64,000 nt of DNA, from assembly GCA_002245135.1 (NCBI GenBank), contig NGBS01001174.1:62001-126000 (forward strand). Reading direction: 5' to 3'. Made by a program: the position numbers and the translations under genes. Origin of the DNA: Proteromonas lacertae (Eukaryota; Sar; Bigyra; Opalinata; Proteromonadidae). Below are positions 18,354-50,600 of this stretch, in pieces (the stretch's first letter is position 1; each line of letters starts with the position of its first letter). The notes beneath the pieces were generated by a model. It worked only from the letters and a program-made list of their open reading frames with translations, made no database searches and was not told where the DNA came from.

Positions 18354-18857
18354 TTTTGAATAATTTAAATGTATTTGTATTGAATTAAAGTGATGTTTGT
18401 TAATAACTGAAGGGATTTAATAGATAAGCTTCTAATTACTAACTATAGGTAATATACGTATGTTCAATACATCTATAAAACTGATTAAAATACTATATAA
18501 TACTTACCAATTTTATAGAAATAAATGCATGTTACTTTGTTTCATAGTTTTCTGTATATAAATATTATTTATAATCTAGAAAATCAGCATTTTAGTAATT
18601 TTTGGTATTTTGATCAAACCACTTAAATCTTCATAATAATTTCATAAATTAAACACAAACATTACATAAAATAATGTTTTTATAGTTTCTGAGTACTTTG
18701 ACAATTTTGTTTACTTATAGTGTTCCCACCTAATACTGTATTATAAACTACTTTACAATTACAGATAAACAATCTAATAACATAAAAACAAAATAAATTA
18801 ACATTTTACTACCGTTAATTATTGTTGAAACAAATTATAAATCGAAAATTGTCAAAC
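18354..18857. other. Intergenic, AT-rich, no gene recognised
   Basis: 504 bp between the RecQ stop and the start of the first papain-like gene. Frames on both strands are short and broken, and no tRNA-like cloverleaf or repeat was seen. It must hold the 3' end of the helicase transcript and the promoter of the papain-like gene. Confidence 0.6.
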
Positions 18858-20207
18858 ATGAAAACTCTTATTTATGCTTGTTTCTTATCATTTTGTGTGT
18901 GTAACTTAGGTTCAAATTTACGCAATCGCTATAAGAATGGTTATCATGACAGTGATAACTGGGATTGGAGAGATCATAATCCAATATCACCAGTTGATAA
19001 TGAATTGAATACTAATTGCTCTAGCTCATATATATTTGCTGCACTTGGTGCAATAGAAGGAGTGAGAACAATAAAAGGTGACAATTTGAAAAAGATTAGT
19101 TCACAAGAATATATTGATTGTTCAGGAAGTAATACATGTAAACTTGGATCTATAATAGATGTTTTAAATTATTATTCAGATAGAGAAGTATGTGAAGATA
19201 GTAAATATTCTTATAGTGGAGTAAAAGAGGAATGTCAAAATAGCAAGTGTAATAGTAATATAAAAATAAAGCAATTATCATATAAAAAGCTTAGAGGTGA
19301 ATTTATGATAAAAACTATGCATATTGTTCCAGTTCCAACTAAAATATATATTGACAGTCTTAGAAATTATACAGGAGGTATTTATCAAGATTATGATGCT
19401 TGTAATCATGAACCAAATCATTGGGTTCTTGTAGTTGGCTATGGTATTGAAGGAGGCGTTGAATATTGGGTAATAAAGAATGATTTTGGTGAAGAATGGG
19501 GTGAAAAAGGATATTTAAGATTAGAAAGAGGAAAAGGAATGTGTGGAATAGGTACAGAGAGCTATGCAGTCTATTAGTATAATAATATTATTGTTTTATA
19601 CTTTTTCTATAGTTCAGAATGGAAGACTTGGATTATAGTCATCGCTGTAGTTGCAGTTGCTCTAGTTCTGATTTGTTGTATATGTTGTTGTTGCTGTTGT
19701 TGTGCAGCTGCAACTGGATCTACTGCTGCAATGACTCATTGCTGTTGTTTTTGCTGCTATAGTGGAAAAGAAAGCTGTATTCATCCAGAAAGGATTGAAG
19801 TAAAAAGAAGCAAACAATATAGTTATAATAATCCATTATATGATGAAACAGGAGTAGATGCTGAAGTTGTTAAACCAGTACAAGGACAAAAAGTAATTAC
19901 ACAACCTGTAGAAGCACAATATATACCTCAACCAGTTCAACAACAGTATTATCAACCACAACCTGTTGAGCAACAATATTATCAACAGCCACTTCAACCT
20001 CAACAATATAATCAACCAATTCAACCAAATCATATAAATGTTCAACAGCAATATATACAACAACCAAGTCCAACAAACAACTATACTCCAGCTTTACAGT
20101 ATGATAAACTGAATAACTCAAATCCTCATAATGAAGAATTCTACAGTCAACACTCAGAAGATAAAGAACCAATTCTTCTACCTGGATCTAATCCTTATAA
20201 AAAGTAA
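18858..20207 (+). CDS. Membrane-anchored papain-like protein with Ser in place of the catalytic Cys (copy A, long Gln-rich tail)
   Basis: 437 residues from two exons (intron 19577-19612). A signal peptide (MKTLIYACFLSFCVCNLG) is followed by a compact C1A fold: WDWRDHNPIS (start of the mature domain), NCSSSYIFAALGAIEG aligned with the papain CGSCWAF helix, SSQEYIDCSG, CKLGSIIDVLNYY, GGIYQDYDAC, EPNHWVLVVGYG with the active-site His, and WVIKNDFGEEWG with the Asn. The nucleophile Cys is Ser and the following Trp is Tyr, and a long prodomain is missing, so ordinary cysteine-protease activity is unlikely. Exon 2 adds a transmembrane helix (TWIIVIAVVAVALVLI), a Cys cluster (CCICCCC and CCCFCC, possible palmitoylation), then ~140 cytoplasmic residues rich in Gln, Pro and Tyr. 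The ATG at 18858 is chosen because it begins the signal peptide shared with the other copies. Confidence 0.86.
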
Positions 20208-20548
20208 AATGTTTATATAAATAGTATTTTATAGTATAAATTAAAATGTTTAATATGGAATTTAACACATAATAACAATTATCTATTCTTCAACTACTAT
20301 TTTTATAATTCTTATAAAATATATTCAGCATTCTTTTCACATTTATACATTCTACAACTTTCATCACCTCAATTAATAATGACTATAGATTTCTTTTCAT
20401 TTTGCAAATATATAGTGTATATGATAAAATTCACAATTTGATCAACGTACCGAATTATTCATTTTTGCAACTAATATAACATTATTTAATTCTTATATAA
20501 ACAAAATAATCAAGAAAATAATAATAATAACAAATTATCCGTTTCATA
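20208..20548. other. Convergent intergenic region between copies A and B
   Basis: 341 bp of AT-rich sequence between two stop codons facing each other. I see no open frame, RNA gene or repeat of note. Confidence 0.55.
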
Positions 20549-21805
20549 TTATTTTTTATGTGGATTAGATCCAGGAAGAAGAATTGGTTCTTTATCTTGT
20601 GATGTTTGAGTGTAAGATTCTTCATTATGAGGATTTGGGTTATTCAGTTTATCATATTGTAAAGCTGGAGTATAATTATTTGTTGGACTTGGTTGTTGTA
20701 TATATTGTTGCTCAACAGGTTGTGGATATTGTTGTAAAGATTGTTGAATATATGGCTGTTGAAATACTGGCTGAGTGATTACTTTTTGTCCTTGTACTGG
20801 TTGAACAACTTCAGCATCTACTCTTGTTTCATCATATAATGGATTATTATAATTATATTGTTTGCTTCTTTTTACTTCTTTCTTTTCTGGATGAATACAG
20901 CTTTCTTTTCCACTATAACAACAACAACAACAACAATGAGTTATGAAAGCAGCTGATCCTACATAACAGCAGCAACAACAACAAATGAAAATGATTAAAA
21001 CAAGAGAGAGTGATACTGCAAGTGCTACAATAATCCAAGTCTTCCATTCTGAACTATAGAAAAAGTATAAAACAATAATATTATTATACTAATAGACTGC
21101 ATAGCTCTCTGTACCTATTCCACACATTCCTTTTCCTCTTTCTAATCTTAAATATCCTTTTTCACCCCATTCTTCACCAAAATCATTCTTTATTACCCAA
21201 TATTTCACTCCATTTTCAATACCATAAGCAACTACAAGAACCCAATGATTTGGTTCATGATTACAAGCATCATAATCTTGATAAATACCTCCTGTATAAT
21301 TTCTAAGACTGTCAATATATATTTTAGTTGGAACTGGAAGATGAGCTACTTTTATCTCTTCTTCATCTTTAAGTGTTTTGTATGATAGTTTCTTTATTTT
21401 TATATTACTATTACACCTGCTATTTTGACATTCATCTATTGTTCCAGTGTATTGATAATTACTGTCTTGACATACTTCTCTATCTGAATAATAATTTAAA
21501 ACATCTGTAATAGATCCAAGTTTACATGTATCACTTCCTGAACAATCAATATATTCTTGTGAACTGATCTTTCTTAAAGAATGAGTATGTAATGTTCTAG
21601 CACCTTCTATTGCACCAAGTGCAGCAAATATATATGAACTAGAGCAATTAGTATTCAATTCATTATCAAAAGATGAGATTGGGTAATCATCTCTCCAATC
21701 CCACTTTTCATCATTATCATCATCTTCACTATAACCATCACGTAAATTTGAGTGAAATTTACCCACACAAAAGAGAAGCAAATAAGCAAAAATGAGAGTT
21801 TTCAT
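20549..21805 (-). CDS. Membrane-anchored papain-like protein, Ser for Cys (copy B, left palindrome arm, long Gln-rich tail)
   Basis: 406 residues; exons 21805-21090 and 21053-20549 with a 36-nt intron whose sequence equals that of copies A and C. The luminal domain has an acidic insert after the signal peptide (SEDDDNDEKWDWRDDYPIS), the substituted active site NCSSSYIFAALGAIEG, the His region NHWVLVVAYG and the Asn region KNDFGEEWG. A transmembrane helix follows (WIIVALAVSLSLVLIIFI), then CCCCCCYVG and a second Cys cluster. The cytoplasmic tail after HPEKKEV resembles copy A (YNYNNPLYDETRVDAEVV, Gln/Pro-rich, ending LLPGSNPHKK). The luminal domain, TM and 5' flank are the same as copy C base for base as far as I compared; the tail is not. 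Family function is unknown; a surface binding or regulatory role is inference. Confidence 0.86.
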
Positions 21806-22105
21806 GTTTAACAAATTGTATTCTTAAAAGTGTTTAAACATTAATAAACGGAAGTATTACTTATGCATTTTTGTTTAAATATTATTAAAAACATTTAATT
21901 GTCAATTTTAAAGTAATATGTAGTGTATATATACACATGAGTGACTGACTAACTAAAATTGTCAAATTTATTAATTCCTTAAATAACTATCTACTACATC
22001 GTATTCATGATTATTTTATCTTCTTATGATTTTCATAAATGAATTAAGTTATTCTATTAGAAAATATATAAATTCAATATTTCTTCTATTTAATTGACAA
22101 TTGGC
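20874..22105 (+). repeat. Left arm of a 1,232-bp inverted repeat
   Basis: Position x pairs with 44395 minus x in the right arm over the whole length without indels: gene starts 21805/22590, introns and outer limits 20874/23521 all obey this sum. Stretches compared by eye were identical; I found one mismatch (22100/22295) near the inner end. It contains most of copy B and ~300 bp of 5' flank. Confidence 0.93.
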
Positions 22106-22289
22106 AAATATAAAGCAATTATTTTAAGTTATCAACCGTCTAATTATATTCATTATTTTTTCTTTACATCTTTACATAGATTTACTCTAGTTATATAGCT
22201 ATATCGAATCAAAGTTAACTGTTGGAAGAACAAATTCGCACAATTCTTATACTTGATGGCAAAATCCATATAATACTATTTCTTTATCA
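22106..22289. other. Spacer of the inverted repeat
   Basis: 184 bp of unique AT-rich sequence at the centre of the palindrome, midway between the divergent starts of copies B and C (784 bp apart). No gene seen. It may hold a shared promoter. Confidence 0.7.
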
Positions 22290-23521
22290 GCCAACTGTCA
22301 ATTAAATAGAAGAAATATTGAATTTATATATTTTCTAATAGAATAACTTAATTCATTTATGAAAATCATAAGAAGATAAAATAATCATGAATACGATGTA
22401 GTAGATAGTTATTTAAGGAATTAATAAATTTGACAATTTTAGTTAGTCAGTCACTCATGTGTATATATACACTACATATTACTTTAAAATTGACAATTAA
22501 ATGTTTTTAATAATATTTAAACAAAAATGCATAAGTAATACTTCCGTTTATTAATGTTTAAACACTTTTAAGAATACAATTTGTTAAACATGAAAACTCT
22601 CATTTTTGCTTATTTGCTTCTCTTTTGTGTGGGTAAATTTCACTCAAATTTACGTGATGGTTATAGTGAAGATGATGATAATGATGAAAAGTGGGATTGG
22701 AGAGATGATTACCCAATCTCATCTTTTGATAATGAATTGAATACTAATTGCTCTAGTTCATATATATTTGCTGCACTTGGTGCAATAGAAGGTGCTAGAA
22801 CATTACATACTCATTCTTTAAGAAAGATCAGTTCACAAGAATATATTGATTGTTCAGGAAGTGATACATGTAAACTTGGATCTATTACAGATGTTTTAAA
22901 TTATTATTCAGATAGAGAAGTATGTCAAGACAGTAATTATCAATACACTGGAACAATAGATGAATGTCAAAATAGCAGGTGTAATAGTAATATAAAAATA
23001 AAGAAACTATCATACAAAACACTTAAAGATGAAGAAGAGATAAAAGTAGCTCATCTTCCAGTTCCAACTAAAATATATATTGACAGTCTTAGAAATTATA
23101 CAGGAGGTATTTATCAAGATTATGATGCTTGTAATCATGAACCAAATCATTGGGTTCTTGTAGTTGCTTATGGTATTGAAAATGGAGTGAAATATTGGGT
23201 AATAAAGAATGATTTTGGTGAAGAATGGGGTGAAAAAGGATATTTAAGATTAGAAAGAGGAAAAGGAATGTGTGGAATAGGTACAGAGAGCTATGCAGTC
23301 TATTAGTATAATAATATTATTGTTTTATACTTTTTCTATAGTTCAGAATGGAAGACTTGGATTATTGTAGCACTTGCAGTATCACTCTCTCTTGTTTTAA
23401 TCATTTTCATTTGTTGTTGTTGCTGCTGTTATGTAGGATCAGCTGCTTTCATAACTCATTGTTGTTGTTGTTGTTGTTATAGTGGAAAAGAAAGCTGTAT
23501 TCATCCAGAAAAGAAAGAAGT
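22290..23521 (-). repeat. Right arm of a 1,232-bp inverted repeat
   Basis: Reverse complement of 20874-22105. Its outer end falls inside the coding sequence, just after the second Cys cluster of copy C; beyond it the two genes have unrelated tails. Confidence 0.93.
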
Positions 23522-23558
23522 TGTTCTTATTCCTTCATCTCTACCATATAAATCATAA
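22590..23558 (+). CDS. Membrane-anchored papain-like protein, Ser for Cys (copy C, right palindrome arm, short tail)
   Basis: 310 residues; exons 22590-23305 and 23342-23558. Signal peptide, papain-like luminal domain, TM helix and Cys clusters are identical to copy B. The cytoplasmic tail is cut to about ten residues after HPEKKEV (VLIPSSLPYKS) and lacks the whole Gln/Pro/Tyr-rich region of copies A and B. The change falls exactly at the edge of the inverted repeat (23521), so the duplication or conversion event itself created the new tail. The Ser-for-Cys and Tyr-for-Trp substitutions are shared by all three copies, so they predate the duplication and argue that the inactive or altered site is maintained. 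Confidence 0.87.
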
Positions 23559-25871: not shown

Positions 25872-27664
25872 ATGAATAAAACTCTTTGTGGTATATTTTA
25901 TTCAATTATTATCTAGTTTTCTTGACCTTCATTGCTGTCTGTTATTCTTCAGAATTTCAAAAGTGTTATGTGAAGAATAGAAATATCAAACCACTCATTA
26001 AATCAAGACTTCCCCACGAATATTTAAAGAAGAGTGAAGTTTCAGAATCATATGATATTAGAAATATCAATGGAAGAAATATGGCTTCAATCACAAGAAA
26101 TCAACATATACCCAACTATTGTGGAGCTTGTTGGTCTTTTTCTGCAACAGCGACAATAAATGATCGTTTAAAATTAGCAACCAATGCCAGTTGGCCAGAA
26201 GCTGATTTATCCATGCAAGTAATACTTAATTGTGATAAGAATGATAATGGTTGTCATGGTGGTGATATGATGAGTGCATTTGAATTTATTCATAGCCAAG
26301 GAGGTATTCCAGATGAGACTTGTCAAATTTATACTGCTACAGGACATGACACAGGTGAGAAGTGTGAAGACACGAACATATGTAGAGATTGTAACAGACA
26401 AGTAGGTTGTTTTGCTGTAAAAAATTATACAAAATACGATATTGAAGAATATGGAGAAGTAAGTGGTGAAGATAATATGAAAGCTGAAATATATGCAAGA
26501 GGACCAATATCCTGTGGTATAGCAGTAACAGAAGACTTAGTGTACAATTATACAGGTGGAATCTATGAAGATAAAACAGGATATAAGGATATTAACCATG
26601 GTATAACTATAGAAGGATGGGGAGTAGAGAATGGTAAGAAATATTGGATAGTAAGAAACAGTTGGGGAAAACACTGGGGTGAAGAAGGATGGTTTAGAAT
26701 TATACGTGGTGTTGATAACTTAGGTATTGAAGAAGATTGTAGTTGGGCTGTACCAAAAATACCAAAAGAGAAAATGACTGAAGAATATAAACGAAAGAAT
26801 TTAAGAAGTCAAACATCAAATATCAAGAGTAATAATGAAAATAAATTCCAAGCTTGTCGATTAGGAAAGAATCAATGGAAAAAGACTGTTATTAGATCAC
26901 CATTACCACATACTTATATCAAGAAATCTGAACTTCCAGAAATATTAGATTATAGAAACTTCAAGGGAATGAATTTATTAACATGGAATAAGAATCAACA
27001 TATCCCTCAATATTGTGGAAGTTGTTGGGCACAAGCTGTAACTTCCATGTTAAGTGATCGTTTGACAATAATGAGAAATGGATCATGGCCTTCTATTGAT
27101 TTATCACCTCAAGTATTAATCAATTGTGGTGATGCTGGTGATTGTAATGGTGGAATGCCAAGTGAAGCATTAAAATGGATTTACAGCAATGGTATAACAG
27201 ATCAAACCTGTGAACCATATACTGCAAAGAATGATGAATGTAAACCACTTGGACAATGTTATGATTGTTTACCTTCAAATACTTCATTTACACCAGGTGA
27301 ATGTAATGCAGTTAAAAAATATAGATCTTATGGAGTTAAAGAGTTTGGTGAAATACAAGGAGCTGATAAAATGAAAGCTGAAATATATGCTAGAGGTCCA
27401 ATATCCTGTGGTATTATGGCTACTGGTAGTTTTGTAGATTATAAAGGAGGAATATATAGTGAAGAAAGTACATTTGTTTGGCCAAATCATGAAATTGAAG
27501 TTGTTGGTTGGGGAAAAGAAGGAAATACTGAGTATTGGATTGGTAGAAATAGTTGGGGTAGTTATTGGGGAATTAATGGATTCTTTTATATTGAGATGTA
27601 CAATAATAATTTGGGAATTGAAGATGATTGTAGTTGGGGTGTTCCTACTTATGATAATCATTAA
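25872..27664 (+). CDS. Double-headed cathepsin X/Z (two tandem C1A peptidase domains)
   Basis: 588 residues. A signal peptide (MNKTLCVFLTFIAVCYSS) is made only after removing a 26-nt intron at 25891-25916. Cathepsin X/Z is a lysosomal carboxypeptidase. Domain 1 (~residues 30-300) has the HIP loop and active Cys in NQHIPNYCGACWSF, the His in DINHGITIEGWG and the Asn in VRNSWGKHWGE. Domain 2 (~320-588) repeats this: NQHIPQYCGSCWAQ, WPNHEIEVVGWG, GRNSWGSYWG. Both keep the HIP insertion that defines the X/Z group, and both triads look intact. The domains share blocks such as KAEIYARGPISCGI. A basic linker (EEYKRKNLRSQTSNIKSN) joins them and might be a cleavage site. This contrasts with the upstream papain-like trio, whose nucleophile is lost. 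Confidence 0.94.
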
Positions 27665-27876: not shown

Positions 27877-29578
27877 ATGGCTACTAAAAGAAAAATTCAA
27901 GAAATTTTATATAATTCTTTAGAGAGCGAAGGATTTCATGAGTTAGCTAAGAAATTAAAGAAAGAGATTAATGTATTTATTTAGATACTAATATATAGCT
28001 TGATAATGTTGAAGAAAAATTAACAATAACTGATTTATTAAAACAAAATAATAAAATGGAAACATCAAATGACTCTACTTCAGAATCATCTGATTCTGAA
28101 GATGAAAAACCAAAGACAACAATATCAAAGAAAGAAGAAAGTTCCTCTGATTCTTCTGATTCCTCTGATTCTTCAGATAGTGAAGATGAAAAACCCAAGA
28201 CAACCACAGCTGCCAAGAAAGAAGAAAGTTCCTCTGATTCTTCAGACTCTTCAGATGATGAAGATGAAAAACCCAAGACAACAACAGCAGCCAAGAAAGA
28301 TAGTTCATCTGATTCTTCTGATTCTTCAGATAGTGAAGATGAAAAACCCAAGACAACCACAGTTGCCAAGAAAGAAGAAAGTTCCTCTGATTCTTCAGAC
28401 TCTTCAGATGATGAAGATGAAAAACCCAAGACAACCACAGTTGCCAAGAAAGATAGTTCTTCTGATTCTTCTGATTCCTCTGATGATGAAGATGAAAAAC
28501 CAACCACAACAACAGCAGCCAAGAAAGATAGTTCATCTGATTCTTCTGATTCTTCAGATAGTGAAGATGAAAAACCCAAGACAACCACAGTTGCCAAGAA
28601 AGAAGAAAGTTCCTCTGATTCTTCAGACTCTTCAGATGATGAAGATGAAAAACCAACCACAACAACAACTGCCAAGAAAGATAGTTCTTCTGATTCTTCT
28701 GATTCCTCTGATGATGAAGATGAAAAACCAACCACAACAACAGCAGCCAAGAAAGATAGTTCATCTGATTCTTCTGATTCTTCAGATAGTGAAGATGAAA
28801 AACCAACCACAACAACAGCAGCCAAGAAAGATAGTTCATCTGATTCTTCTGATTCTTCAGATAGTGAAGATGAAAAACCCAAGACAACAACAGCCAAGAA
28901 AGAAAGTTCCTCTGATTCTTCTGATTCCTCTGATGATGAAGATGAAAAACCAACCACAACAACAACTGCCAAGAAAGATAGTTCTTCTGATTCTTCTGAT
29001 TCCTCTGATGATGAAGATGAAAAACCCAAGACAACCACAGCTGCCAAGAAAGAAAGTTCTTCAGATTCTTCTGATTCTTCAGACTCTTCAGATGATGAAG
29101 ATGAAAAACCAAAATCCACAACAGCTGCCAAGAAAGATAGTTCATCTGATTCTTCAGACTCTTCAGATGATGAAGATGAAAAACCAACCACAACAACAAC
29201 TGCCAAGAAAGATAGTTCTTCTGATTCTTCTGATTCCTCTGATGATGAAGATGAAAAACCCAAGACAACCACAGCTGCCAAAGAAAGTTCTTCAGATTCT
29301 TCTGATTCTTCAGACTCTTCAGATGATGAAGATGAAAAACCAAAATCCACAACAGCTGCCAAGAAAGATAGTTCATCTGATTCTTCAGACTCTTCAGATG
29401 ATGAAGATGAAAAACCAACCACAACCAACAACTGCCAAGAAAGATAGTTCTTATTCTTCTGATTCCTCTGAAATGATGATATGAAAAGCTTCAGAAGAGG
29501 AGATTTCAGATTTATAGAGGAGGACAAATAGATCCACATCAAAATAATGCCATCAAATTTGACAGTGATGATGAATAA
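27877..29578 (+). CDS. Nopp140/SRP40-like nucleolar phosphoprotein with broken 3' end
   Basis: A short first exon (MATKRKIQEILYNSLESEGF, LisH-like) is joined by removing a 26-nt intron (27973-27998) to LDNVEEKLTITDLL and then about 18 Ser/Asp/Glu plus Lys/Pro/Thr repeats. This is the plan of Nopp140/SRP40, a CK2-phosphorylated chaperone of snoRNPs between nucleolus and Cajal bodies. The family C-terminus is recognisable at 29518-29578 (RGGQIDPHQNNAIKFDSDDE then TAA), but is not in frame with the repeats. One extra C near 29425 (ACAACC for ACAAC of sister repeats) shifts the frame and gives a stop at 29447; further indels lie near 29475 and 29510, and most of the SRP40 C-terminal domain is absent. 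Either this is assembly error in a repeat or the gene has a damaged end. Confidence 0.72.
28080..29427 (+). repeat. Tandem repeat array, ~18 units of about 70-85 bp, coding for SSSDSSDSSDDEDEKPKTTT-type units
   Basis: Each unit has a Ser/Asp block, EDEKP, then a Thr-rich and Ala-Lys-Lys block. Units vary in Ser block length and in TTTAAKK versus TTTVAKKEE endings, with higher-order patterns: neighbouring pairs and triplets recur, as expected from unequal crossing over. Long open frames in other frames and on the minus strand are by-products of the repeat. Confidence 0.92.
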
Positions 29579-35618: not shown

Positions 35619-38600
35619 ATGACTTACTGCATTTCAATGATATGCTTGCTTATGATATCATCATTAGTTGTGGGTTATGATGATCCTGTGTTTTATTCCC
35701 AGAATCTTGGTAATAAAATCCAAACTACATTGATTGTAGATGATCGTGATCCAAGAAAGATTAAGTCTAGCACAGTAGAAATAGATTCTACACCACCAGC
35801 TAAGACTCAAGTAGTGAAAATATCAACATCACTTTCATCATTAAAGCGTGGATTTATTGAAGTAAGATCTACTCCAGAGAAGTTATACAGTCAAGTTCAT
35901 TCAATCATCTTACACACTGACCATGTTCCACGTATTGAAGGTTTAAATATTACATCTTCTAAGAATGAGACTATTTTATTAAGACTATTACCAACCACCA
36001 AAACATTAGAATTACAATTCCCTCTCACAATGACTCAATTAATAGGTAAGATTCAAGAAGGATTTGGTAATAACATTTTTGAGAAGGTAACCAAGGTGAA
36101 TGACTATGAATATATATTTACCTATAAAGCCAGTAACTGTAATTCTTACAAATTACAGATTATTAATTCTACTACTAGTTATATTTATGTCAAACAACAA
36201 GCTACTGATTTAGAAGGTACTTTTCACTTAAAGAGTAATAATGCAGTTTCTGCACCAATATCTGTTAATTTAAATGAGACATATGTTAGAGATATATTAG
36301 CCTCACTTAATATTAACGATGTAAAAATAAAAATTTTACCATTATCAACCAGTAAATACTATGGCAAGATAATTAGAATTGAATTTTATCCTAAAGAGAA
36401 TGATATAGGTAATAATGCGTATAGAAGAGTATTAGGTATTGTAAACAATATGAATAATGGATCATTTATTCAATATTGCAGAAATCAAAAATCAGATTCT
36501 CTCTGTAACTTGACTGATTCAAGAGATGCAACTAAAATAATTGGAACTTATCAAATACACTCAAAAAATGATCAATTTACACTCAAAGCTGATAGTAGTA
36601 AAAATGAAATTGAAAATGCATTTATCAGTTTAGGTTTTGAGAATGTAAAAGTTGAGATGTATAACACTACATATGCAGGTCCAAATTATAAAGTTTGTTA
36701 TGATAATGCATTATTAATGTGTAAAATAATAACAGACAAGTTAAAATCAACCAATGAAAATGAAGATAATAAAGTAAATATAAAAGTCAATAGTAATAAT
36801 CCAAAGAATAAAAATAGTAATAGACTCAGTGGTAGTTTTGAATTACGTTATAAAGATACATCTTCCCCTCCATTACCTTGTAATATCGATATGGAAGGAT
36901 TAACCATATCATTAAACCAAATATCACAATTAGGAGCAGTTGAAGTAATGAATAGAGATTGTAATAGCAATTCTAATACATGTGACTTTACATTACATTT
37001 CATTGATGCTGTTAATGTTACTGAATTGAGTGTTGATGGTAGTTTATTGAGAGTAATAAATAATAGACATAATGATTATCCAATGATTGATTTGAAGATT
37101 ATATCTGGAGAATATTCTAAACCACCATTTAATTCATATAATAATGGACCTGAATATGTTTCAACTAAATATAATGACGATTATACTCATATTATCAGTG
37201 AATTAGCATTAGATCATCGATTTTATATAAGAGGAATAATCACTTATACTGATAATACAAAGTCAGAATATATTACATCAATACCTCCATCCATATTGAC
37301 TAAAAAAATTCCACCAGCTTCACCTACTAATATTACAGTAGAATATGTTGATTTGAACAATATAATCTTACACTGGAATAGACCAGTTTATAATGGAGGT
37401 CAATTCTTAGATGGATTTGAGATGGAATATAGTGAGAAAGACTTCGTTTCAAATATCCAAAGAGTGACAATTAAATATACAGCAAAACAAAGTAATGATA
37501 AATTCCATTTGGTTTATGGTGAAGAAATGACTAATGCTATTCCAATATCAGCTAGTGCATATGAAGTAGAGAATAGAATAAAGAAATTGAATAATATTGG
37601 TGATATTAGTGTGATTAGAAAAGATAAAGTTGAAAATGGTAAATTTGTAGTATATTTTGATATAAAGTTTGGTTTTTGTCGTTTGAATAATGAAGATGTT
37701 TATGTATGTAATAGTCAAGACAGTATTTCAACATTTAAATCATATTCAAGTAATGAATTAGATATAACAATTAAGACAATCTCATCTTTAAATCAGAATA
37801 TACAATCAATAACTAAACAATCAATACCAATAAAGAGTAATCAAAGATTATTGATTGATTTACAACAAAATACATTCTCGTACAAAATCCCAATCAAATT
37901 AGGTGTTAATAACAATTATAATGTGAGATTCTATACAAGAACATCCTGTAATGGAGGTAGATCTGATTGTTCTGTTTATAGTACTCCATTTGAGTTTACT
38001 ATTCCAAAAGTAGCAATTCCTACAGCTCCTTCTCATTTATATTTAGACTCAAAATCCGAAGAAGAAATATCATTTCATTGGTTAGCTCCAGTTGAAAATT
38101 ATGGCACAAATATAACAGGATATGAAATACAAATGAGTGAAATATTAAACACTGATAATTGGATTACTGTGTATGAAGGAAATGGTTTATCAAACATCAC
38201 TCAAGCTACAATAAGAAGTAATGAAACTGAATGGATAAAAGGAAGAAAATATTATTTCAGAATTCGAGCAATTACTCATTTATTAAGAGGTAATTTCAGT
38301 CAACCACAATCATTTGTTATTTCAGAATCAACAATACCAAATGCAATGAATCAACCACCAATTATATGTGATACAAACTCAACTGATGGAATTATCACTA
38401 TTAAATGGTATTCTCCTGAAAATGGTGGTAGTGAAATTACTAGTTATCATTTACATATTAATAATGAAGTTGAAAAATATGAAGTTAATAAAACTGAATA
38501 TAATCCTGAAGGAATATATTATTATTCGTTTGAAGATAGAGATTCAGATAAGAAATATACAATATCAATTGCTGCTGAGAATATAAATGGAATTGGTGAA

Positions 38601-41600
38601 TTAAGTCCTTCAGTTGATGTATATGTAAGTGATATACCACAACCACCAACTGATATTACATATTTAACCGTTTCAAATGACAGTATTAGTATTAAATGGC
38701 TTGATCCTGTGTTTGAAGAAGCAAATCCAATCATTGGTCATAATGTTTATATGGTTACTAATCCAGTATCCAATTATATTAAAGATGAGACAGTTAAAAA
38801 TACGATTTATGAATTAACTATTAATAATGCTGAAGATGGTTATTTTGTTGTTAGTTTTGGTGATTATTATAGTGATAATATTCCATATGATGTAGATGAA
38901 GAAGTATTAGCGACTAAAATATCTGAAGTATCTAGTGAAATAGCTGTAAAAGTAGAAGAAAGAGATAATGATGAGAAAGATGAAGAAAATAATGTTACTG
39001 AATATAGAAATCTAAATAATACAAATGATGATAATGATAGTGGTAATAGAACATTTATTATTACATTTATTCAACCACTTGGAGTTGTTAAAAACTTCAG
39101 ATGTTTTTCTGGAAGATTATTACCATTACCAACAGCTACAGTAAATTGTAAAATCATTCAAATGGGAAGTAATGTTACTTTAATCCATCATAATGTAGAA
39201 GATCCACACTTATCATCTTATACAATTAACAATATCAAATCATCCAAACCATATTCATTTATTGTAACAACTATTAATAGAAGAGGAGAAAGTTTACCAT
39301 CATTTCCATCTACCACTGTTTGGAGCGATAATAGAATCAGTAATAAATATACTTATGCAATTGGTAATGGTATAAAGAATGGAATTAGTGGAATTATTCA
39401 TGAAGAACAGTATATTTATTTACCAAAGAAGTGTAATGTTTCAATTAATGCAGGAAAAGATGAAAGTGAAATAATTGATATGAATACAACTGAAGTTAGT
39501 GATATTGAAAGAATTATTAGTGAATTGTATATGGTGAATAATGAGGGAATTGGAAGTGTTAAAGTATCAATTCAAACTATCTATTTGAATGACACTAATA
39601 GTGAAATGACAATGATGAAAATGAAGATATTATTTAACAATGGTAATGACTATCCTGAATTAAGGTTTACTATTTACAATAATAACAACGAAGAAAATGA
39701 GGAAGAAGAAGAAGGAGATGATAGTAATAAAGTGAAATACACAACAGAATTAGTGAAAGGTAAATATAATGAGTTTACTAATTGTTCCAAGAACTTCAAC
39801 TAATGATTATATAGGTAATGAATTATATCCTAATAGTTTACAAGGTAAAGAAATCTTTTATACTGAAATTCATGATGTAAATACTGAAGAATGGGTTGAA
39901 GATGGATATATAAGTAAATATAACCCAATGATTTATAAAACGTTGCAATATGATTTGAATAATTCTACTGAAAATGTATTTGATGAAATAACAGTTGAAT
40001 TTAATAATAAACATTACAAATTCAATATTTTAGATGATTTGAATGTGATTATGAATAAATTAGATGGTTTTATTAAAGATAGTCAAACAATAATCAATTA
40101 TAGTAATTTCATATTAACTATAAGTATAACATATTCTCCATTTAATAAAGAAATAATTGTACAAAATAAAGATGATATTATTGAACCAATAGTATTAGAA
40201 TCTCATCAAACTGTTCAACAAATCATTACTGGATTTGGTAATGATGAAGGAAGAAACGGATCTTTTATTATTAAGATGGAAGATCAAATCTTGTTTGATC
40301 CATTACAATGGGATATTTCAGCTGAAGATTTATTGAATCAAATAATGAAGTTTGATTTAGTTAAAGATATGAATATAACAGTAAATAGAACTGAATTAGG
40401 ATATGGTTATAAGTATAATATTGTGTTTAATAATATATATGGATTTGTATCTCCAATTGAAGTAATGGATTATAATTATACACATTTTATATATTCATCC
40501 AATGGAAATGATTCAATTAGTATTAGAGGTTTATTACAATTCAGATATAAGAATGAAACTACTAAATTAATACCATCTTGGTATTCTGCTAGTGAAATAA
40601 AGAAAGGAATTGAAGAATTACCATCTATTAATAGAGTAGAAGTATTTATAGAATCAAGTAATGTTAGTCAAGTAATCTATCATATTCATATTATTGATCC
40701 ATATTTAGTTGATGAAAGTGAATTTAAATTAGATCAATTTAGAATAACTGGTAATAAAATAAACAATGAACAATTGTTTAATGTTGAATTAATTCCAAGA
40801 CATGTTAAATCTTTGTATGCAATTGATGGATATGTAAAATCAAATATATTGGTTGAAGGATTACCTAGTTATACTGGAAAATATACCGTTTCAAAACCAG
40901 GAGAATATAAATTGTATGTCACTCAACCAAAGAGTGGATTAAAAGCTGAATATTATGATAATTTATGGTTTAAAAATACACCAAAATTAATACGAATTGA
41001 GAGAAGAGTTGATTTTGATTGGAATAATAAAAGAATCACTGAATTAGGAAGTAAATTAATATCCATAAAATATACTGGAAAAATAAGACCAAAAGTCAGT
41101 GGAAAATATAAGATTTACTTAAATTCAATAGATGGTGCTAGATTATATATAAACCATACATTATTTATTGATAATTGGAATAACAATAACAATGAAGTAG
41201 AAAAATGGAATGAAATTGATTTAATTAATGGAATTTATTATGATATTTCTATTGAATATCATAATGTTAGAAATAGTCAACCAAAACTACAGTTATCATG
41301 GAGTAATCATTTGATTCATAAAGAAATCATTCCTTCCACTATTTTTTATCACTTAGAACATATTAAAGGATCACCATACATTATTAATGTCAAACCTGGA
41401 TTTGGTCAATACAAACATTCAACAATTGTTAGTGGTAATACTACTAATTGTCAAGTTGGAATAGAATCACATATTATTGTTTTAGTGAAAGATGAAAATG
41501 GAAATAGTATTTTTGATAACAAACCAACTCAAAATACAGTTAAAGCTATTTTAACCAGTGTAATTGATCCTGATAGATATACATATTATCCCGAAGTTTT

Positions 41601-44600
41601 ATATTTAGGAGAAGGTAGATATGATATTAAATATTTAGTTGAAAAATCAGGTGAATATAAAATGTCATTATTAGTGAATGATTATGATATAGAATGTGAT
41701 TTAATCAACAAATGCAGTCCATTCATAATAATAGCATCAGCTGGATCAGTATCTGTTTATAATACAATAATAAATGGACCAAAATGTGGTACAGTTGGAA
41801 AACCAATCTATTATACAATCAATCCAAGAGATAGTTTTAATAATACAATAGTAAGAGAGAATGAGATGTTTACAACCTATTTGGAGTATTTAGATGAAGA
41901 TGTTGACAATTTATACAGTCAAATATCACATTCTTATTATTATAAAGATGATTTATACTCATTCCAATTTATACCATTTAAAACCGGAAGATATCATGTT
42001 TATACAAAGAATAACAACACAAAAGTACATTCATTTAGTAATGGAATTGTTACAATTAATGCAGGTATTATCGACCAATCAAAATCTGAGATTGCTTTGA
42101 ATTTTACACGTAATGTAGTAAAGGCACATGATGTGAATATAGTTACTTTATTATTAAGAGATGAATTTGGTAATATTCGAAATAATTTCAATTATACATG
42201 TAGTAGTTATGATAATAATGATTTATTTATTAATAGAATATTCATGAATATATCTAAGAATAATAATAAACAGGTTGTGTTTGAAACATCTACAATACAA
42301 TATAATGTAATAATAAATGAAAATTATGATGAAGAATATTCGTTAATATTTTATGGTAAAGCAATTGTAGGATTGTATAGAAATGTATCAATCTATTATA
42401 TTCAACATAAATTGAATAACATTCATCCAGTAAGAGTAGATGAAATAGAGAATGGATATAGAGTGACAATATTAAGAGATTTATCTGATTGGTATATTAA
42501 TGTCTTTGAAAGTAGGAATGATAATGTAAAAGTTACATTTATAAATGATAAATCAGGAGTTATTCAATTACCATATGTTCTTCATGAAACTGGTAATTAT
42601 ATTGTTGATGTTAGTTACAATGGAGTTGAATTTTCTAATTCTCCATTCCATTTGATTGTTATATCAAATGATTACGATGCTAAATCAACAGTGTTTTATG
42701 GAAATGATGGAAAGACTGATGAAAGTATTCAATTTTATATTCAGACAGTTGATACACCAGTAAATGAGATTGATTTGTTATATATTGATACTACCAAAGA
42801 TATATCAAATAATATCAATAACAATAAAACAGTAAGACAATTAGAAACAAGTAATAGAAACACCAAAATAACTTATAGTTGTAATTTTGTAACAGAAAGT
42901 GAAGAAATAACCTTCTCATTATTTGATGAAAATATCACTGTATATTCGTATATGAATGTTGATGAAATCTCTTCATTATTATCACAATATTTTGGTTTAG
43001 TTAAAGTCACATCATCCAATGAAACTCGTTTATGTCCATTTTATGAGAATATTGAAACTGATGTTGATGATGATTCTACAGCTGGTACAATAACTGAATT
43101 AGATCCAAGATTACTATTAGAAGATGAAGATGATATTGGTTATTTTACAATAGAATTCTTCAATTTAACAGGTAAAATTCCATTGAGAATCTATCCAGAA
43201 TCTTTGTATTTATTACCAAATAGAACATTTTATGAAAATACTGAAACTCCGTACTGTGGATATTATTATTTCTCATTGAATGAAGTATCAACTATTCGAT
43301 TATTCATAACATCATCACTTGAAGTGATTAAAGAAGCATTTAATAATGCATTTAAACATTCAAAGATATTAGGAAAGTATGAAATAAGAAAACCAATAGA
43401 GAATTTAACCTTATATGAATATGAGTTTATACAGAATATACCTCATCAACCAGATAATGTTTATTCATTATTAAAATTACATTATAAATTCGTTAATAAT
43501 AATGATGAAAGTATTATTAAACCACAAGTATTATACACTCAAATCCAAACTCCAATAAGAGAAAATAACTTGACAACTGATATTGGAATTAAACCATTCA
43601 ATGTTTCATTTAGTAATAACAATACAGATTTTGTGATAGGTGAATGTCAAAGACAAGAATTTATATGCAATACTGATGATTTTAATGAAGATGAAAGAAT
43701 AATAAATCAATTTGTATTGGCTAGTTCAATTGGTAGACCAATAATAATTGATTCAGATAATGTTACAGTTTCTGATTTTATAAAGATAATTAATGATAAT
43801 TATAATACAAGCTATGTAGTAGAAACAGCAGTAGGTGAAAATACAAAAATATGTAATAATGTCAGTATTATATTGAAAGATTGTAATGGTAAGAATAAAG
43901 ATCCAACATTCTATGTAAACCCAACAAATACTTTCTTTGGAATAATTAATACAAGAGTATTGGAACAAAAAACAGTTAGTATTAAATACATTGACAATGG
44001 ATTATATGAAGTAGATTATTCATCAATGAATAGTGGTATTTACACTCCTCATGTAATTGAAAATAATAATAATAATACTGAAGAAATGAATATGTATGAG
44101 TATTTAAAGATTGATATAACATCATCTGATTCAATTGATATTATCCATTCTATTCATTCATTACCTCCTTATGGATTTAGTAATGTTCCAGTAATAGAAG
44201 AAATACAATTGAATGATAAGTATTATAATAAAGTAAATAGATATTTAAATGAGAATGAAGAATTGGAGATTAAGATAAAGAATGAATTAGATGGAAGTAT
44301 AATACCATATGAATTAAGTCCAAAAGAAAATGGAATATACAATTTGACATTTATACCAACTCTAAGTAACAAGTTAAATGTTGAAATATCAATGAGAATC
44401 AAAGGTGGATTAAAAGCTTTGTATTATACAAGTGAAGATTTCAATGAATTATATTATGGAAATATATTCCATTGTCCAATCAAAGAGAGTGATTGTGATA
44501 GTACGAGAATTGATAAAGTGATTGATTTTGATTGGGGTTTATCTAGTGAATTTATTAATTATCCATTTGATTATATCAGTATGAAATGGGTTGGTTATAT

Positions 44601-47600
44601 ATTAATACCTTATAATAATGATAAATATACATTTTACTTAACAAATGATTATTATGTAAGTTTAATTATAGATGGAAATGAAATAATGAAGACTAATATT
44701 AATGATAGAATAGATAATGAATTATCGACCAGTATTGAATTATCTGAAGGTTTGCATTCAATTGAAATTACTTATATTTCATTAACAGGTGAATCTTTCA
44801 TTAAATTTGAATGGGAAAGTGAAAACATTGAAAGAAGTGTTATAGATTCTGAGTATTTCTATTATGAAAGAAATATAAGTCAAAGTCCATTTGTAATGGA
44901 TATTTATCCAGGTGAAATGTCTTCATTATCATCCACAATAGAATCATTAGAAAATTCTACAAGTAATTTGACATTAATATTGACAACAAGAGATATTAAT
45001 AGAAATGTATTGCTAAATAATGGTAATAGTCAATTTGAATTAGAAATGATTGGAATTGAAGATTGGGCTGGAAATGGTAAAGTTGGTCCATTCTACACAA
45101 ATGTTTCACATAAAGTAACAAACTGTAAAGTTGAGCCAATTCATTGGAATTTAATTTGTGAAAGTTGTGGTGAATATAATGAAATATCACGAAGATTATA
45201 TTTGAATAATTCTGGTTATTTACTACACAAAGGTGAAAGATTATTAATTGAAGATGAATTAGTTACAATTTCATTAATAAATGAATTGAGAAGTAATAAA
45301 AAAGGATTTGTAATTGAAAATTTAAAGAATAATAAGCATAGTGGATTAAAGGTATATCATGTAGGAGATGATACTGGCAAGTATTATGTAAGATGTGAAC
45401 CAGAAATACGAGGTAAATATAACTTCTATATTATACATAAGAATATAACTAATGAAATTCCTGTAATGATTTATCCAGTGACTGATGTTGATTATTGTAG
45501 TGTAATATTTAATAGTGAAATAATATCTGGTAGAAATAGTGAATTTTATATTCAAAGTAGAGATAAGTATTATAATAATCAAATGAGAGATATTGATGAA
45601 TATGATGTTAAATTGATTAATAACCATAATGATAGTATTACAATCAATTGTACAGTTAATTATATGTTTGATGGATTATATAATATAAGCTTTATACCAG
45701 TAGTAAAAGGTAATTATAGAATAAATGCTATCATTAATGGAAAGTTAGTTAGTCTTGGTAATAAGACTGTTGATGTTGTTTCAAAAGATGGAGTTGATGG
45801 TTCAAAATGTGTAGCAATTGAAGATAAAGTAACTCATGGCTTGACAGGTTCAAACTATTCAACAATTGGTGAATATACGATAGAATTGAGAGATGTGAAT
45901 AGTAATAGAATAGAACCTCAATATAGACATGAAATCCAAACAATAAAAGTTCCAATAAAATCAGGTAGTGAATGTAGATACAAATTGATATATAAAAACA
46001 CAGAAACAAAGGAAATATCGTGTTATTTAAATGGAGAGGAATTAAAGAAAGAATTATTTAAATATATTGAATTTGGAACAGTTGAAGTGACACTTACAGA
46101 AGAAGGAGATTATAAATATTATCAATTAATATTCATTACTGAAGAAGGACCATTGACAAATGTTAGAAGTACTAGCATTTATCAAGATATTCATATATTA
46201 ACATGTGATGAAAATGAATATCAAAGGATTAATTATACTGTAAATTCTGATAAACCATACTATTTATATTACAATAATTATCATACTGAAGCAATATATC
46301 CAAATAATAATACTGCTGAAGAAATAATGCAAAATATACTGAAGAATATACCAACAATATTGAATTTAACAATTGAAATGATTGAAAACAATTCATATAT
46401 TATTAGGTTAATATCTGTAGATGATGAAAGTGATAAGAAGTATATGAAATTCTATCCAAATACTTATGATAAAGATGATATTATATCAAATGAGATTATT
46501 TGTCCAATATATACACAATATGGAGTATATCCAGAGAAATTCTATGGTGAATTGACACGTTATAATAGTCAATATATTACATGCCATCAAGAAGTGGATA
46601 GTAATGTAAAATGTGTTTATAAAACACCAAGAGTTGATAACTATACACTTTCAAACTATTATTTGACTCGAGGAGGTTTGAATGGAACTTATCATGCTAG
46701 TAGATGGTTATCTGGTACAGTGTTAGGAAATAGAATTGATAAAGAGATAAACTTCAACTGGCCTGGTTTAATATTTGATAAAGAATCTGATGTTTTATCA
46801 ATTAGATGGAATGGTTTTATTGAAATAGTTTTTGCTGAAGAATATACAATAACAGCCAAGTTTAATGGAGGTGTTAAAGTAATTATTAATAATAAAGAAA
46901 TAATGAATGCAAATCATCTTGGCAATGAAGAAGAAGTTAGTGGAAAATTCAATGTAACTGTTGCTACAGTTTATCCGATAGAAATACAATATAATGATCA
47001 AATAGGTAATTCAGTGATTGAATTGTATTGGGAATCTGAACATCAAATCAAATCAATCATTCCATCCAATAGATTATTCTATAAGAAAGAATTAATAGAA
47101 AATTCACCATCATTTAATATTCCCAAACCAATATTACCAGGAATTGCAAGTGATGTTACAGTTGGTGTAGTAAATGCAACCGCTTTGAAATTGCAATGGA
47201 ATTCACCAGCTGATAGTGAAATGAGTGATGGAGATGGTGGAATAGCAATTGATCATTATTTAATCACATACAAACAAGAAGATTATGATGAAGAGATAAA
47301 TTATTTATACAATATAACAACAGCTCCAATTACACATTTTGAGTTTATTATATCTAACTTAAAACCAATGAATGAAACATGTATTAGTATTACATCTCAT
47401 AATGAAGCTGGCTATGGAGAAAGATATAATTATACTGAATGTATTAGACCAGAATCTACTCCATCAGATATTACTTATTTGAAAGTCTATCATATAGAAG
47501 ATAATGATAATTCATTGAGATTATATTATGTTGAACCATATGAATGGAATAGTATTAATAAAACAGGATACTTAATTGAATGGTCATTATCACAATTTAA

Positions 47601-50600
47601 TGAAAATAGTAATGAAAATATACAATCCTATTTATTAGAGAATTATACACAATTAACCTATGATATACCAAATCTAATAACAGGAGAAGAGTATTATATT
47701 CGAATAGCTGCAGTTAATGGTAGAGGAAAAGGACCATATGAAACTCTAACAAATCCAATGAAAGTAATGGCAAAACCTCATCCAATACATTATATATCAA
47801 TAGCAGTAGAAGATGTTAAATCCAACTTAGATTTAGATACTTGTAACATATCTACATCATTATTAATTACATTTGATGAATCACCTGATGAAAGAGGTAG
47901 TGAAATTGATTACTATTTAGTAGAATATGTTCCAGCTGGTGAAGAAGTAGAAACAAAAAAGCCAAACGATTATATTATTCAAAAGAATTATACATTAACA
48001 GTTTGTAATGATGAAAGTAGAATATCATATCAATTTATAGTTGTTGATAATGATAATAATGAATATAGATCTACATTTATTAATAGTAAACTACCTGAGT
48101 ATGAACTTAAATCGTTATTGGAAGGAATTACTGGTATTAATAAAGTAAAAGTTGAATTAAATGGTAATAATTACACTATTAATATATATAATAATATTAC
48201 TCTCAGTATATTCTCATATAATGGATGTGATGAATTAAAGCCTATAAGTAGTGAATATTTAGAGAATGAGTATTATAAATATGGAATTGTTAAAACATAT
48301 CCAAAACAAACCAATTTCAATATCACAATAATGAATTTAAACACTTCAATACATTATGCATTCTATATTTCATCACATAATGAAATGGGTTTGAGTAAAC
48401 CTCAAATTGGAGTTCCACAAAGGTTTTCACCACCAACAATTCAACCAGATCCACCAAGAAATGTAACTGTTAGAAATATAATAGAAAATGGAACAGTTGA
48501 AGTTAGTTGGATTACTCCAGTATGTGATGGTGGTTCTGTGATTGATAAATATCACATTTTATTTACCTCATCATCTAATTCTACCCATTTTAATGCAATA
48601 GCAAGTGATAGTTGTAGTGATAATAATTGTTCAATAATAATTGATAAGGAAATAGTATTAGGCGTTGAATATGAAGTAAGTGTTTATTCAAGAAATAAAG
48701 AATCATTGTCAAAAGTTGGTTGTTATAGTGACAAAACTATTATTCCACATGTAATTCCAGATAGAGTCAAATCATTAACAAGTCATAAATTAGAGAATGG
48801 ATCTGTTTTATTAGAATATATACCTGGTTTTAATGGCGGATTGAATATTACATATTATGAAATACAATATGATATTATGGATAATTTTATTCATTTAATT
48901 GAAGCACAAAAATTTATTCATCAATCATTTAATTCATATTCGTTTACAAGAAATAGAAATAGTGCACCAATAACTTTTAAATGTGATGGACATTCTACAG
49001 ACTATATTGAAGTTGATAATAGATTTGATATGATAAAAGAATTGGAAAGTTATGATTTTATTGGTCATGTTGATTTATATTATTATGTTTTACCAACATC
49101 AACTAATAGTATTACTTATGTTGTGAAATTCTTATCAGGAACATGTGAAGATTTTAGTGCAGAAAAAAATGGAAATAATTATAATGACCAACCTAATTCA
49201 TTAACTACAAAATATGAAGGTTTGAGCTATCAAGTTATAAATATGAGTAATAATAATAGTTTTAGTTTGAAAGTTGGAGATAAACAGACAATAACTATGA
49301 GTGATAAAGTTACCGTTAGTGAAATGAAAAGAATTATTGAGAATTCATTACCATCATTAGGAAGTGTAGAAATTGTAAAGAATAGAAATGAATTTAACTC
49401 TCAATTTACTATATATTATTTATCTTATGTAAATATTACTGGAATGACTATATTAGAAGCAAATGGTGAAAATAATGTAAATATAACAGAAGTTAATGTA
49501 GGAGAATATGAAAACATATCAACAATATTCAGTCGTACAATATATGTTCCAGCAAATCCTAATGCAGAAATACAGCAGTTTGTATTGAATGACTTAATTC
49601 CTGGTGTTTCATATTCAATAAACATAAAAGCCACAAATCAAGATGATAAGAATAGAAAAGAGTATTATAGTTTAGAACAATACTGTAATCCATTATTGAC
49701 TAAGTCTATTGAATTAATAAGTTCACCAGAGTCAATTAAAGTGAAAGTCATTGATTCAAGGCAAATAGAAGTATCTTGGTTACCACCATTTGACTATGAA
49801 AAACAAGAAATAGATAGTTATAAAGTAGAATATGATACAAGTAAAGACTTTCTGGTTAATCCAAAATCTAAAATATTACCATATCAAAGTGAAATACAAA
49901 GAATTATTGTTTCAAGTTCATATCCAGATTTACATGGTTATTTTAGAGTTTATTATTTGAATAAATATCATACTGTTAATATTCCATTTAATACTACAGC
50001 TGAAAAGATGAAAGAAGCATTGGAGGATATTTCTGTTCCAGTCAAAATTGTGAATAGAATAGAAATGACATATTCTGCAATACCACCTATATCACCATAT
50101 GGTTATATTTATGATATTGAATTTTTTGAATCAAGATTTCAGTATTCAATGTTACAAGTGTCAAGCCAAATAGGCATATTTAATAATATATCATACAATC
50201 AGAATTTGGGTGGAAATTTAGCAAATGTGAGAGTGGAAAGAATTCAAAAAGGTGGTTTACCGTCCTCGTTAGTAATAAACAACTTAAATTCTGATTTCAC
50301 ATATTATGTGAGAATATCCAGCCATAGTTCATTATCTGATATTTACAGTACTCCAACTATATATACAAGCAAGATTAATCTTGAAAAGAAAGTTCCATCT
50401 GAACCACAGAATGTGACTATTTATTCATATAATGATAATGAAGTTACTGTTTATTGGAATAAACCTTTATATAATGGTGGTTCTGAAATAACTCATTATG
50501 ATATCCAAATATCTGACACATTTGATTTTGAAACAATAAGAACAAATGAATATAAATTATTAATAGATAAATATAATAGTAATAATGATGTTTATGATTT

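What the first reader, a model, noticed from the sequence alone, without database searches (positions are those of the whole stretch)
18858..23558. Family of membrane-anchored papain-fold proteins with serine replacing the catalytic cysteine
All three copies have NCSSSYIF where papains have CGSCWAF: nucleophile Cys to Ser and Trp to Tyr, while the His (NHWVLVV) and Asn (KNDFG) regions remain. They lack a visible prodomain, carry a signal peptide, a single TM helix and juxtamembrane Cys clusters. Serine-type papain relatives are known in Plasmodium SERA proteins; a type I membrane form with a Cys/Gln-rich tail is new to me. It may be a surface receptor, inhibitor-type pseudoenzyme or adhesin. 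This is my best candidate for an undescribed system here.
Basis: partly seen in the sequence, partly recalled or inferred. Interest (0 to 1): 0.75.

Follow-up and report, generated by a model that had tools for sequence, protein, structure and literature searches.

The report
Membrane-anchored dead papain-like surface proteins
In an unidentified single-celled eukaryote, a small gene family seems to have turned a protein-cutting enzyme into a membrane-tethered binding protein: the cutting residue is replaced and the built-in safety lock is gone.

Summary
Three genes at exactly 18858-23558 encode a signal-peptide-like start, a papain-fold (C1A) domain with Ser at the catalytic Cys25 position, one transmembrane helix, a Cys cluster and a variable tail. 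Copies 2 and 3 are arms of a 99% palindrome with identical ectodomains. The assembly holds four more open copies (C737 twice, C168, C266) and four relatives come from unnamed sources; Ser25 is kept in all 11. Nine rows tested form one clade (100/98), the ectodomain is under purifying selection, and no family locus has the I29 prodomain that Cys-type paralogues keep. In 9 of 9 aligned rows the cleft is remodelled: Gln19 to Glu with a two-residue insertion, Gly23 to Ser/Asp, Gly65 lost, residue 160 to Trp, Ser176 to Asp, Trp177 to Phe/Tyr. His159 and Asn175 remain. Best reading: a non-peptidase ligand-binding membrane protein. A serine-type hydrolase is not excluded. Each ingredient is known elsewhere: SERA5 for Ser25, a beetle homologue for the E-S-H-N tetrad, Entamoeba EhCP-B for anchoring. 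The combination is a new variant of a known kind. Trp26 to Tyr is not special; Cys-type relatives have it too. Organism, expression and function remain unknown.

The parts
18858..19576 (+). copy 1, exon 1: signal-peptide-like start and papain-fold ectodomain
   Evidence: ORF 18822-19577; PF00112 E 5.6e-44; gene model
19026..19028 (+). copy 1, codon TCA for Ser at papain position 25
   Evidence: codons, alignment
19577..19612 (+). copy 1, inferred 36-nt GT..AG phase-2 intron; unspliced it gives an in-frame TAG just before the TM exon
   Evidence: intron-less C737/C168 copies read straight through here; C115 has a 37-nt intron at the same place (by eye)
19613..20207 (+). copy 1, exon 2: TM helix, Cys cluster, NPLY motif, Gln/Pro-rich tail, stop
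21090..21805 (-). copy 2, exon 1: signal-peptide-like start and papain-fold ectodomain
21054..21089 (-). copy 2, inferred 36-nt intron, same sequence as copy 1
20549..21053 (-). copy 2, exon 2: TM helix, Cys cluster, NPLY motif, Gln/Pro-rich tail, stop
22590..23305 (+). copy 3, exon 1: ectodomain identical in DNA to copy 2
23306..23341 (+). copy 3, inferred 36-nt intron, same sequence
23342..23558 (+). copy 3, exon 2: TM helix, Cys cluster, short different tail without NPxY, stop
20874..22126 (.). left arm of inverted repeat (1253 nt, 99% complementary)
22269..23521 (.). right arm of inverted repeat, 142 nt from the left arm

Best explanation
A lineage-restricted family of type I membrane proteins whose outer domain is a C1A papain fold that no longer cuts peptides and instead serves as a ligand-binding (receptor, adhesin or scaffold) module. 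Shown from sequence: Ser25; no I29 prodomain; a rebuilt cleft; one TM; juxtamembrane Cys; tails that differ between copies with identical or near-identical ectodomains. Inferred: delivery to the cell surface or an endosomal membrane by the signal-peptide-like start; S-acylation of the Cys cluster; binding of a peptide or protein to the changed cleft, where His159, Asn175, Ser25 and the invariant Glu19, Trp160 and Asp176 form a fixed site; coupling to endocytosis or signalling through the tail (NPLY in copies 1 and 2). Retention of the 36-nt intron would give a soluble form that stops before the TM.
For: Ser25 in all 7 open copies of the assembly and in the 4 external relatives. Nine of these 11 rows were put in trees (copy 3 and C737b, near-duplicates, were left out): one clade, 100/98 and 100/100, on a long stem of 1.2-1.4 changes per column, so one loss of Cys25, then retention. 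Ectodomain dN/dS 0.29-0.50 between the different members, against 0.19-0.36 for 4 Cys-type pairs: the genes are kept. The tail of copies 1 and 2 is also held (dN/dS 0.22 over 168 codons). Nine of 9 aligned rows lose Gln19 (Glu, with a two-residue longer loop), Gly23, Gly65, Ser176 and Trp177 and have Trp160; of 18 Cys-type rows, 18 keep Gln19, Gly23, Gly65 and Ser176, 17 keep Trp177, and none has Trp160. PMC4336737 (passages) concludes from docking that the Gly23/Gly65 pair is crucial for substrate binding. No I29 prodomain at any family locus, while the Cys-type, membrane-anchored C115 and C997 have one. For SERA5, also Ser25, one study found no protease activity and an indispensable non-enzymatic role (PMC4671257, abstract and passages).
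Against: The Ser-His-Asn set is intact in 9 of 9 rows, which a dead site does not need. This is weak evidence for catalysis: 64 of 204 domain positions are invariant, so three named sites are all invariant by chance with p 0.03. Another report ascribes chymotrypsin-like activity to the SERA5 central domain (PMC3265493, abstract in the listing), so Ser25 need not mean dead. Ectodomain dN/dS is slightly higher than in the Cys-type pairs, so some relaxation is possible. No ligand, localisation or expression data. NPxY is absent in copy 3, C737, C168, C266 and P0004, so that motif is not general. Cleft mapping at position 65 is uncertain for C266 and P0004.
Confidence: 0.55

Rival explanations
1. 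A true serine-type hydrolase: Ser25, His159 and Asn175 work as a triad on an unusual substrate (ester, glycan-linked or inorganic), at the cell surface.
For: Ser25, His159 and Asn175 kept in 9 of 9 rows down to 45% identity. Ser25 codons differ synonymously (TCA six times, TCT once), so Ser itself is kept. An abstract ascribes chymotrypsin-like activity to the Ser25-type SERA5 domain (PMC3265493, listing). Silicateins are a Ser25 precedent (recalled; abstracts in the listing describe catalysis of silica formation).
Against: The oxyanion Gln is replaced by Glu and its loop is longer, the S1 glycines are lost, and Trp sits next to His. The zymogen prodomain is absent. PMC4671257 could detect no SERA5 activity with the same Ser.
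Confidence: 0.2
2. A decoy or regulator of the organism's own cysteine peptidases: it binds their propeptides, inhibitors or substrates in the papain-like cleft, holding them at the membrane.
For: Papain fold kept. 45 PF00112 matches in the genome, most of them outside this family, one gene next door (25886-27664). SERA5 regulates egress as a pseudoprotease (PMC5500368, title and start of abstract in the listing).
Against: The cleft is so changed that canonical propeptide or inhibitor binding is doubtful. A neighbour on the chromosome is not evidence of interaction.
Confidence: 0.17
3. Decaying duplicates without function, or assembly artefacts.
For: The palindrome, allelic-looking contigs C737/C168 (98.0-99.5% alike) and C266/C785 (99.2% with 14 gaps) show a messy, partly redundant assembly. 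C785 is broken. Tail dN/dS is near or above 1 for C737a against C737b/C168 and for copy 2 against copy 3.
Against: Seven open copies, ectodomain dN/dS well below 1, and four relatives elsewhere with the same ectodomain features.
Confidence: 0.05

Closest known systems
Plasmodium serine-type SERA proteins (SERA5)
   Same: Papain-fold with Ser at the catalytic Cys; monophyletic Ser subfamily beside Cys-type relatives; non-enzymatic role in one study (PMC4671257, PMC2878606; abstracts and passages).
   Different: SERA5 is a parasitophorous-vacuole protein; no membrane anchor appears in the passages seen. P. berghei SERAser has His to Met with Gln kept; here Gln is lost and His kept. The P. berghei genes were dispensable, and PMC3265493 (abstract) claims activity for SERA5. 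No specific kinship shown.
Inactive cathepsin L homologue TmL30 of the beetle Tenebrio
   Same: Same catalytic tetrad E-S-H-N (PMC4336737, passages).
   Different: It keeps Gly23 and Gly65. A membrane anchor or the further cleft changes were not reported in the passages seen.
Entamoeba EhCP-B cysteine peptidases
   Same: C1A enzymes of a protist, several with a C-terminal TM or GPI (PMC1913524, passages: EhCP-B3 has TM 444-466).
   Different: Catalytic Cys and a pro region are listed for EhCP-B3; here Ser replaces the Cys and no I29 is found.
Silicateins and TINAG-like proteins
   Same: C1A fold with Ser25 (recalled; silicatein alpha 6zq3 matches with E 6e-25 to 5e-25).
   Different: Soluble or matrix proteins (recalled), not TM-anchored; no specific kinship tested.
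C115 and C997 genes of the same genome
   Same: C1A domain followed by a C-terminal TM; C115 has a 37-nt phase-2 intron in the same place before the TM (by eye); C997 shares the two-residue longer loop before Cys22 and Tyr26.
   Different: Cys25, Gln19, Gly23, Gly65 and I29 prodomain kept. The tree does not group them with the Ser family; grouping is not rejected (p-AU 0.084 for C997, 0.138 for C115). C997 has a frame break.

Membership tests
Peptidase family C1A (papain) fold | PF00112 match over the curated cut-off | tested here: met
Peptidase family C1A, active peptidase | catalytic Cys25 | tested here: not met
   Ser in all 7 open copies and 4 relatives (rows)
Peptidase family C1A, active peptidase | oxyanion Gln19 | tested here: not met
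   Glu, 9 of 9 rows, with a two-residue longer loop
Peptidase family C1A, active peptidase | His159 and Asn175 | tested here: met
   9 of 9 rows
Peptidase family C1A, active peptidase | I29 inhibitory prodomain (cathepsin L-like zymogens) | tested here: not met
   0 of 19 genome matches at C308, C737, C168, C266; no I29 in scans of C266, P0004, P0001 at E up to 10
Plasmodium SERA, Ser type | Ser25 in a papain-fold domain | tested here: met
Plasmodium SERA, Ser type | specific sequence kinship to SERA proteins | tested here: inconclusive
   no SERA entry among the 60 of 168 PDB sequences shown, and no hit so named among the 28, most of which carry no name; no SERA profile was run
Silicatein | Ser25 with His and Asn | tested here: met
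   the definition is recalled
Silicatein | silica condensation | not testable with these tools
   needs an assay
EhCP-B-like membrane-anchored C1A | C-terminal membrane anchor | tested here: met
   hydropathy
EhCP-B-like membrane-anchored C1A | Q-C-H-N tetrad | tested here: not met
   E-S-H-N

The most novel reading that the evidence does not exclude
A class of surface recognition receptors made from a papain fold: the former catalytic cleft has become a fixed Glu-Ser-His-Trp-Asn-Asp binding site. The ectodomain is held nearly constant within a locus while recombination swaps the inner tails and copy number between haplotypes. Retention of a 36-nt intron chooses between membrane and soluble forms.
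Probability: 0.12. Interest if true: 0.7.

Novelty: new variant of a known kind. Interest (0 to 1): 0.42.

Why it matters
If right, it is a clear case of a secreted protease becoming a membrane protein with binding rather than cutting as its job. It shows coordinated loss of nucleophile, oxyanion Gln, S1 glycines and prodomain, in a eukaryote whose RNA polymerase II subunit has only one close relative among the 120 proteins listed (98%, unnamed source), all others being at most 61%. Cys-type, membrane-anchored relatives in the same genome give a natural comparison for testing the order of these steps.

Tried and rejected
Tyr26 as a family signature: rejected, since C997, C115 and two C1140 genes with Cys25 have Tyr26.

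C115 or C997 as the direct sister of the Ser family: the trees do not show it (0% of 200 bootstrap trees for the C997 grouping); the one-clade tests do not reject it (p-AU 0.084 and 0.138). The shared intron place (C115) and the shared loop length (C997) remain unexplained clues. A grouping with the C1140 pair is rejected (p-AU 0.005).

The tail fused to other ectodomains: 6 matches in the genome with the copy-1 tail, all at family loci. Conserved domain in the tail or in the N-terminal extension of C266/P0004: none over its cut-off; the P0004 model is of low confidence there (pLDDT mostly below 60 in residues 21-190).

Naming the organism: RPB2 gave only one close, unnamed hit among the 120 listed. 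The 18S search (RF01960) did not complete. COX1 was not found in the assembly.

Literature: searches listed no title on a membrane-anchored Ser25 papain family (one search found no paper at all). This covers only the open-licence library, and I judged by titles and abstract openings.

A count of other hits was also corrected (27, not 26).
Full report
What is there. The window lies in a 50.2-Mb eukaryotic assembly (contig C308). Between 18858 and 23558 are three related genes. Copy 1 (+, 18858-20207) and copy 2 (-, 21805-20549) encode 437 and 406 aa; copy 3 (+, 22590-23558) encodes 310 aa with a shorter, different tail. Copies 2 and 3 lie in a 1253-nt inverted repeat, 99% complementary with 142 nt between the arms, and their ectodomains do not differ in any of 203 codons. 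Each protein has a papain-fold domain (PF00112; E 5.6e-44 for copy 1 and 4.3e-42 for copy 3), one strong TM segment and 13-15 Cys in the 40 residues counted after it. The N-terminus carries a short hydrophobic core from residue 4 (11-residue mean 2.42-3.45 in the 11 members, above any 11-mer of the ectodomain), but its best 19-mer is only 1.18-1.76, so a signal peptide is likely, not proven; no predictor was run.

The intron. The papain domain and the TM are on separate exons joined by a 36-nt GT..AG intron, identical in the three copies. Splicing is inferred, not shown. It is supported by copies in C737 and C168 that have no intron and read on in frame through the matching Glu-Trp-Lys-Thr-Trp and TM sequence, and by C115, whose papain and TM exons are separated by a 37-nt GTATGT..TAG intron at the same place and phase (read by eye). 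Because the intron is phase 2 after TA, the unspliced message has TAG just before the TM and would give a soluble protein. P0001-P0003 also end at this point, as unspliced genomic reading would.

Family size. A genome search with copy 1 gave 43 matches. The seven best are Ser25 genes: three here, two in C737, one in C168 and one in C266, the last with a longer N-terminus (510 aa). C785 is a broken near-copy of C266 (99.2%, 14 gaps, 12 mismatches). C737 and C168 share flanks at 98.0-99.5% and look like two versions of one locus; the C168 gene fits a crossover between the two C737 genes (with tails compared). So there are at least three loci. In the search of 5.8 billion proteins only four further members were found, all from the source labelled lgn, with a single sequence (666 candidates) and with a profile (7999 candidates scored, a cap). 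Sensitivity is limited to relatives sharing short words.

Position 25. In a joint alignment with all 31 hits, copy 1 and P0001-P0004 have Ser at 25. Of the 27 other hits, one (P0151) has no letters there; of the remaining 26, 24 have Cys, one has Ser (P0018, a cathepsin M-like rodent protein) and one has Ala (P0021). In the assembly Ser25 is TCA in six copies and TCT in one.

The cleft. The 30 domain rows were my choice: 9 of the 11 family members (copy 3 and C737b left out), 15 other genes of this genome and 6 outside proteins; the two-domain, cathepsin B-like and fragmentary matches were not included. For the table I dropped two long-branched decayed rows (C1111, C188) and one duplicate (C139d), leaving 27. 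All 9 Ser rows have Glu at 19, Ser or Asp at 23, Tyr26, no Gly at 65, His159, Trp160, Asn175, Asp176, and Phe or Tyr at 177. All 18 Cys rows have Gln19, Gly23, Cys25, Gly65, His159, Asn175 and Ser176; 17 have Trp177; none has Trp160; 4 have Tyr26. The loop before Cys22 is two residues longer in the family. The alignment at 65 is uncertain for C266 and P0004. That residue 160 lines the S2 pocket is recalled; the S2 list in PMC4336737 does not name it. That paper's docking led its authors to call the Gly23/Gly65 pair crucial for substrate binding (passages).

Prodomain. A whole-genome I29 search gave 19 matches, at C139, C1140, C624, C997, C115, C188, C81, C604 and C633, and none at C308, C737, C168 or C266. 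So the two Cys-type, TM-anchored genes keep the zymogen lock and the Ser family lacks it. This fits a loss of peptidase activity, though it does not prove it.

History and selection. The 9 Ser rows are one clade (100/98; 100/100) on a long stem. Ectodomain dN/dS is 0.29-0.50 between the different members (copy 1 against copy 2 is the 0.50) and 0.24-0.40 among the nearly identical C737/C168 genes, where few changes exist. Four Cys-type pairs give 0.19-0.36. The tails are uneven: 0.22 for copy 1 against copy 2 over 168 codons, so that tail is held; 1.15 and 1.09 for C737a against C737b and C168; 1.70 for copy 2 against copy 3 on 11 differences; and 0.79-1.50 against C266, where the alignment is poor. 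In the ectodomain 64 of 204 positions are invariant, so keeping all three of Ser25, His159 and Asn175 has a chance probability of 0.03: suggestive, not decisive.

Mechanism. Shown: fold, Ser25, cleft changes, absence of I29, TM segment. Inferred: no peptidase activity (about 0.75), surface or endosomal binding role (about 0.55 overall), S-acylation of the Cys cluster, tail coupling. The NPLY motif is only in copies 1 and 2. The main rival is a serine-type hydrolase using the intact Ser-His-Asn set.

Comparison. SERA5 of Plasmodium also has Ser at this position; one study found no protease activity and an indispensable non-enzymatic role (PMC4671257, abstract and passages), while an abstract ascribes chymotrypsin-like activity to its central domain (PMC3265493, listing). 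In P. berghei SERAser the His is Met and the Gln is conserved, the reverse of what is seen here, and the genes were dispensable (PMC2878606, passages). The beetle homologue TmL30 has the same E-S-H-N tetrad but keeps both S1 glycines (PMC4336737, passages). Several Entamoeba EhCP-B members carry C-terminal anchors, with the Q-C-H-N tetrad mostly intact in the table rows seen (PMC1913524, passages). PMC10318531, a classification of papain-like proteinases, has no occurrence of silicatein or SERA in its main text (term search). So the parts are known and the combination is new to the searches made here.

Limits. There are no expression data. The palindrome was not checked with reads.

Noticed in passing
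window 25886-27664 (+): A gene with two papain domains in tandem (592 aa, PF00112 twice), Cys intact; C26 and three tandem copies in C604 look alike. The cathepsin Z label is my recall.
   Followed up: no
L046 (C1111) and L047 (C188): Two more papain-like genes without catalytic Cys: C1111 also lacks the usual His and Asn contexts (by eye); C188 has Ala at 25 (by eye), has an I29 match and is cut by a stop.
   Followed up: partly
L039/L040 (C737/C168): Two versions of one locus: C168 fits an unequal crossover between the two Ser-papain genes of C737 that removes the stretch between them.
   Followed up: partly
L024 (C115) around 1275-1305 and 2150-2190: Very short introns: one of 37 nt and one of about 28 nt, by eye.
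   Followed up: no
window 28151-29465: Tandem array, period 75 nt (17 copies) or 228 nt, open in several frames on both strands.
   Followed up: no
window 35619-55002 (+): Two adjoining very long ORFs (1394 and 5077 aa) with fibronectin III, PA14 and filamin repeats; likely giant surface proteins.
   Followed up: no
P0018: A cathepsin M-like protein of the rodent Acomys has Ser at position 25 and Ser for the catalytic Asn.
   Followed up: no
G000 C102, C146, C573, C1155: Tubulin genes in adjacent opposite-strand pairs, repeated on several contigs.
   Followed up: no
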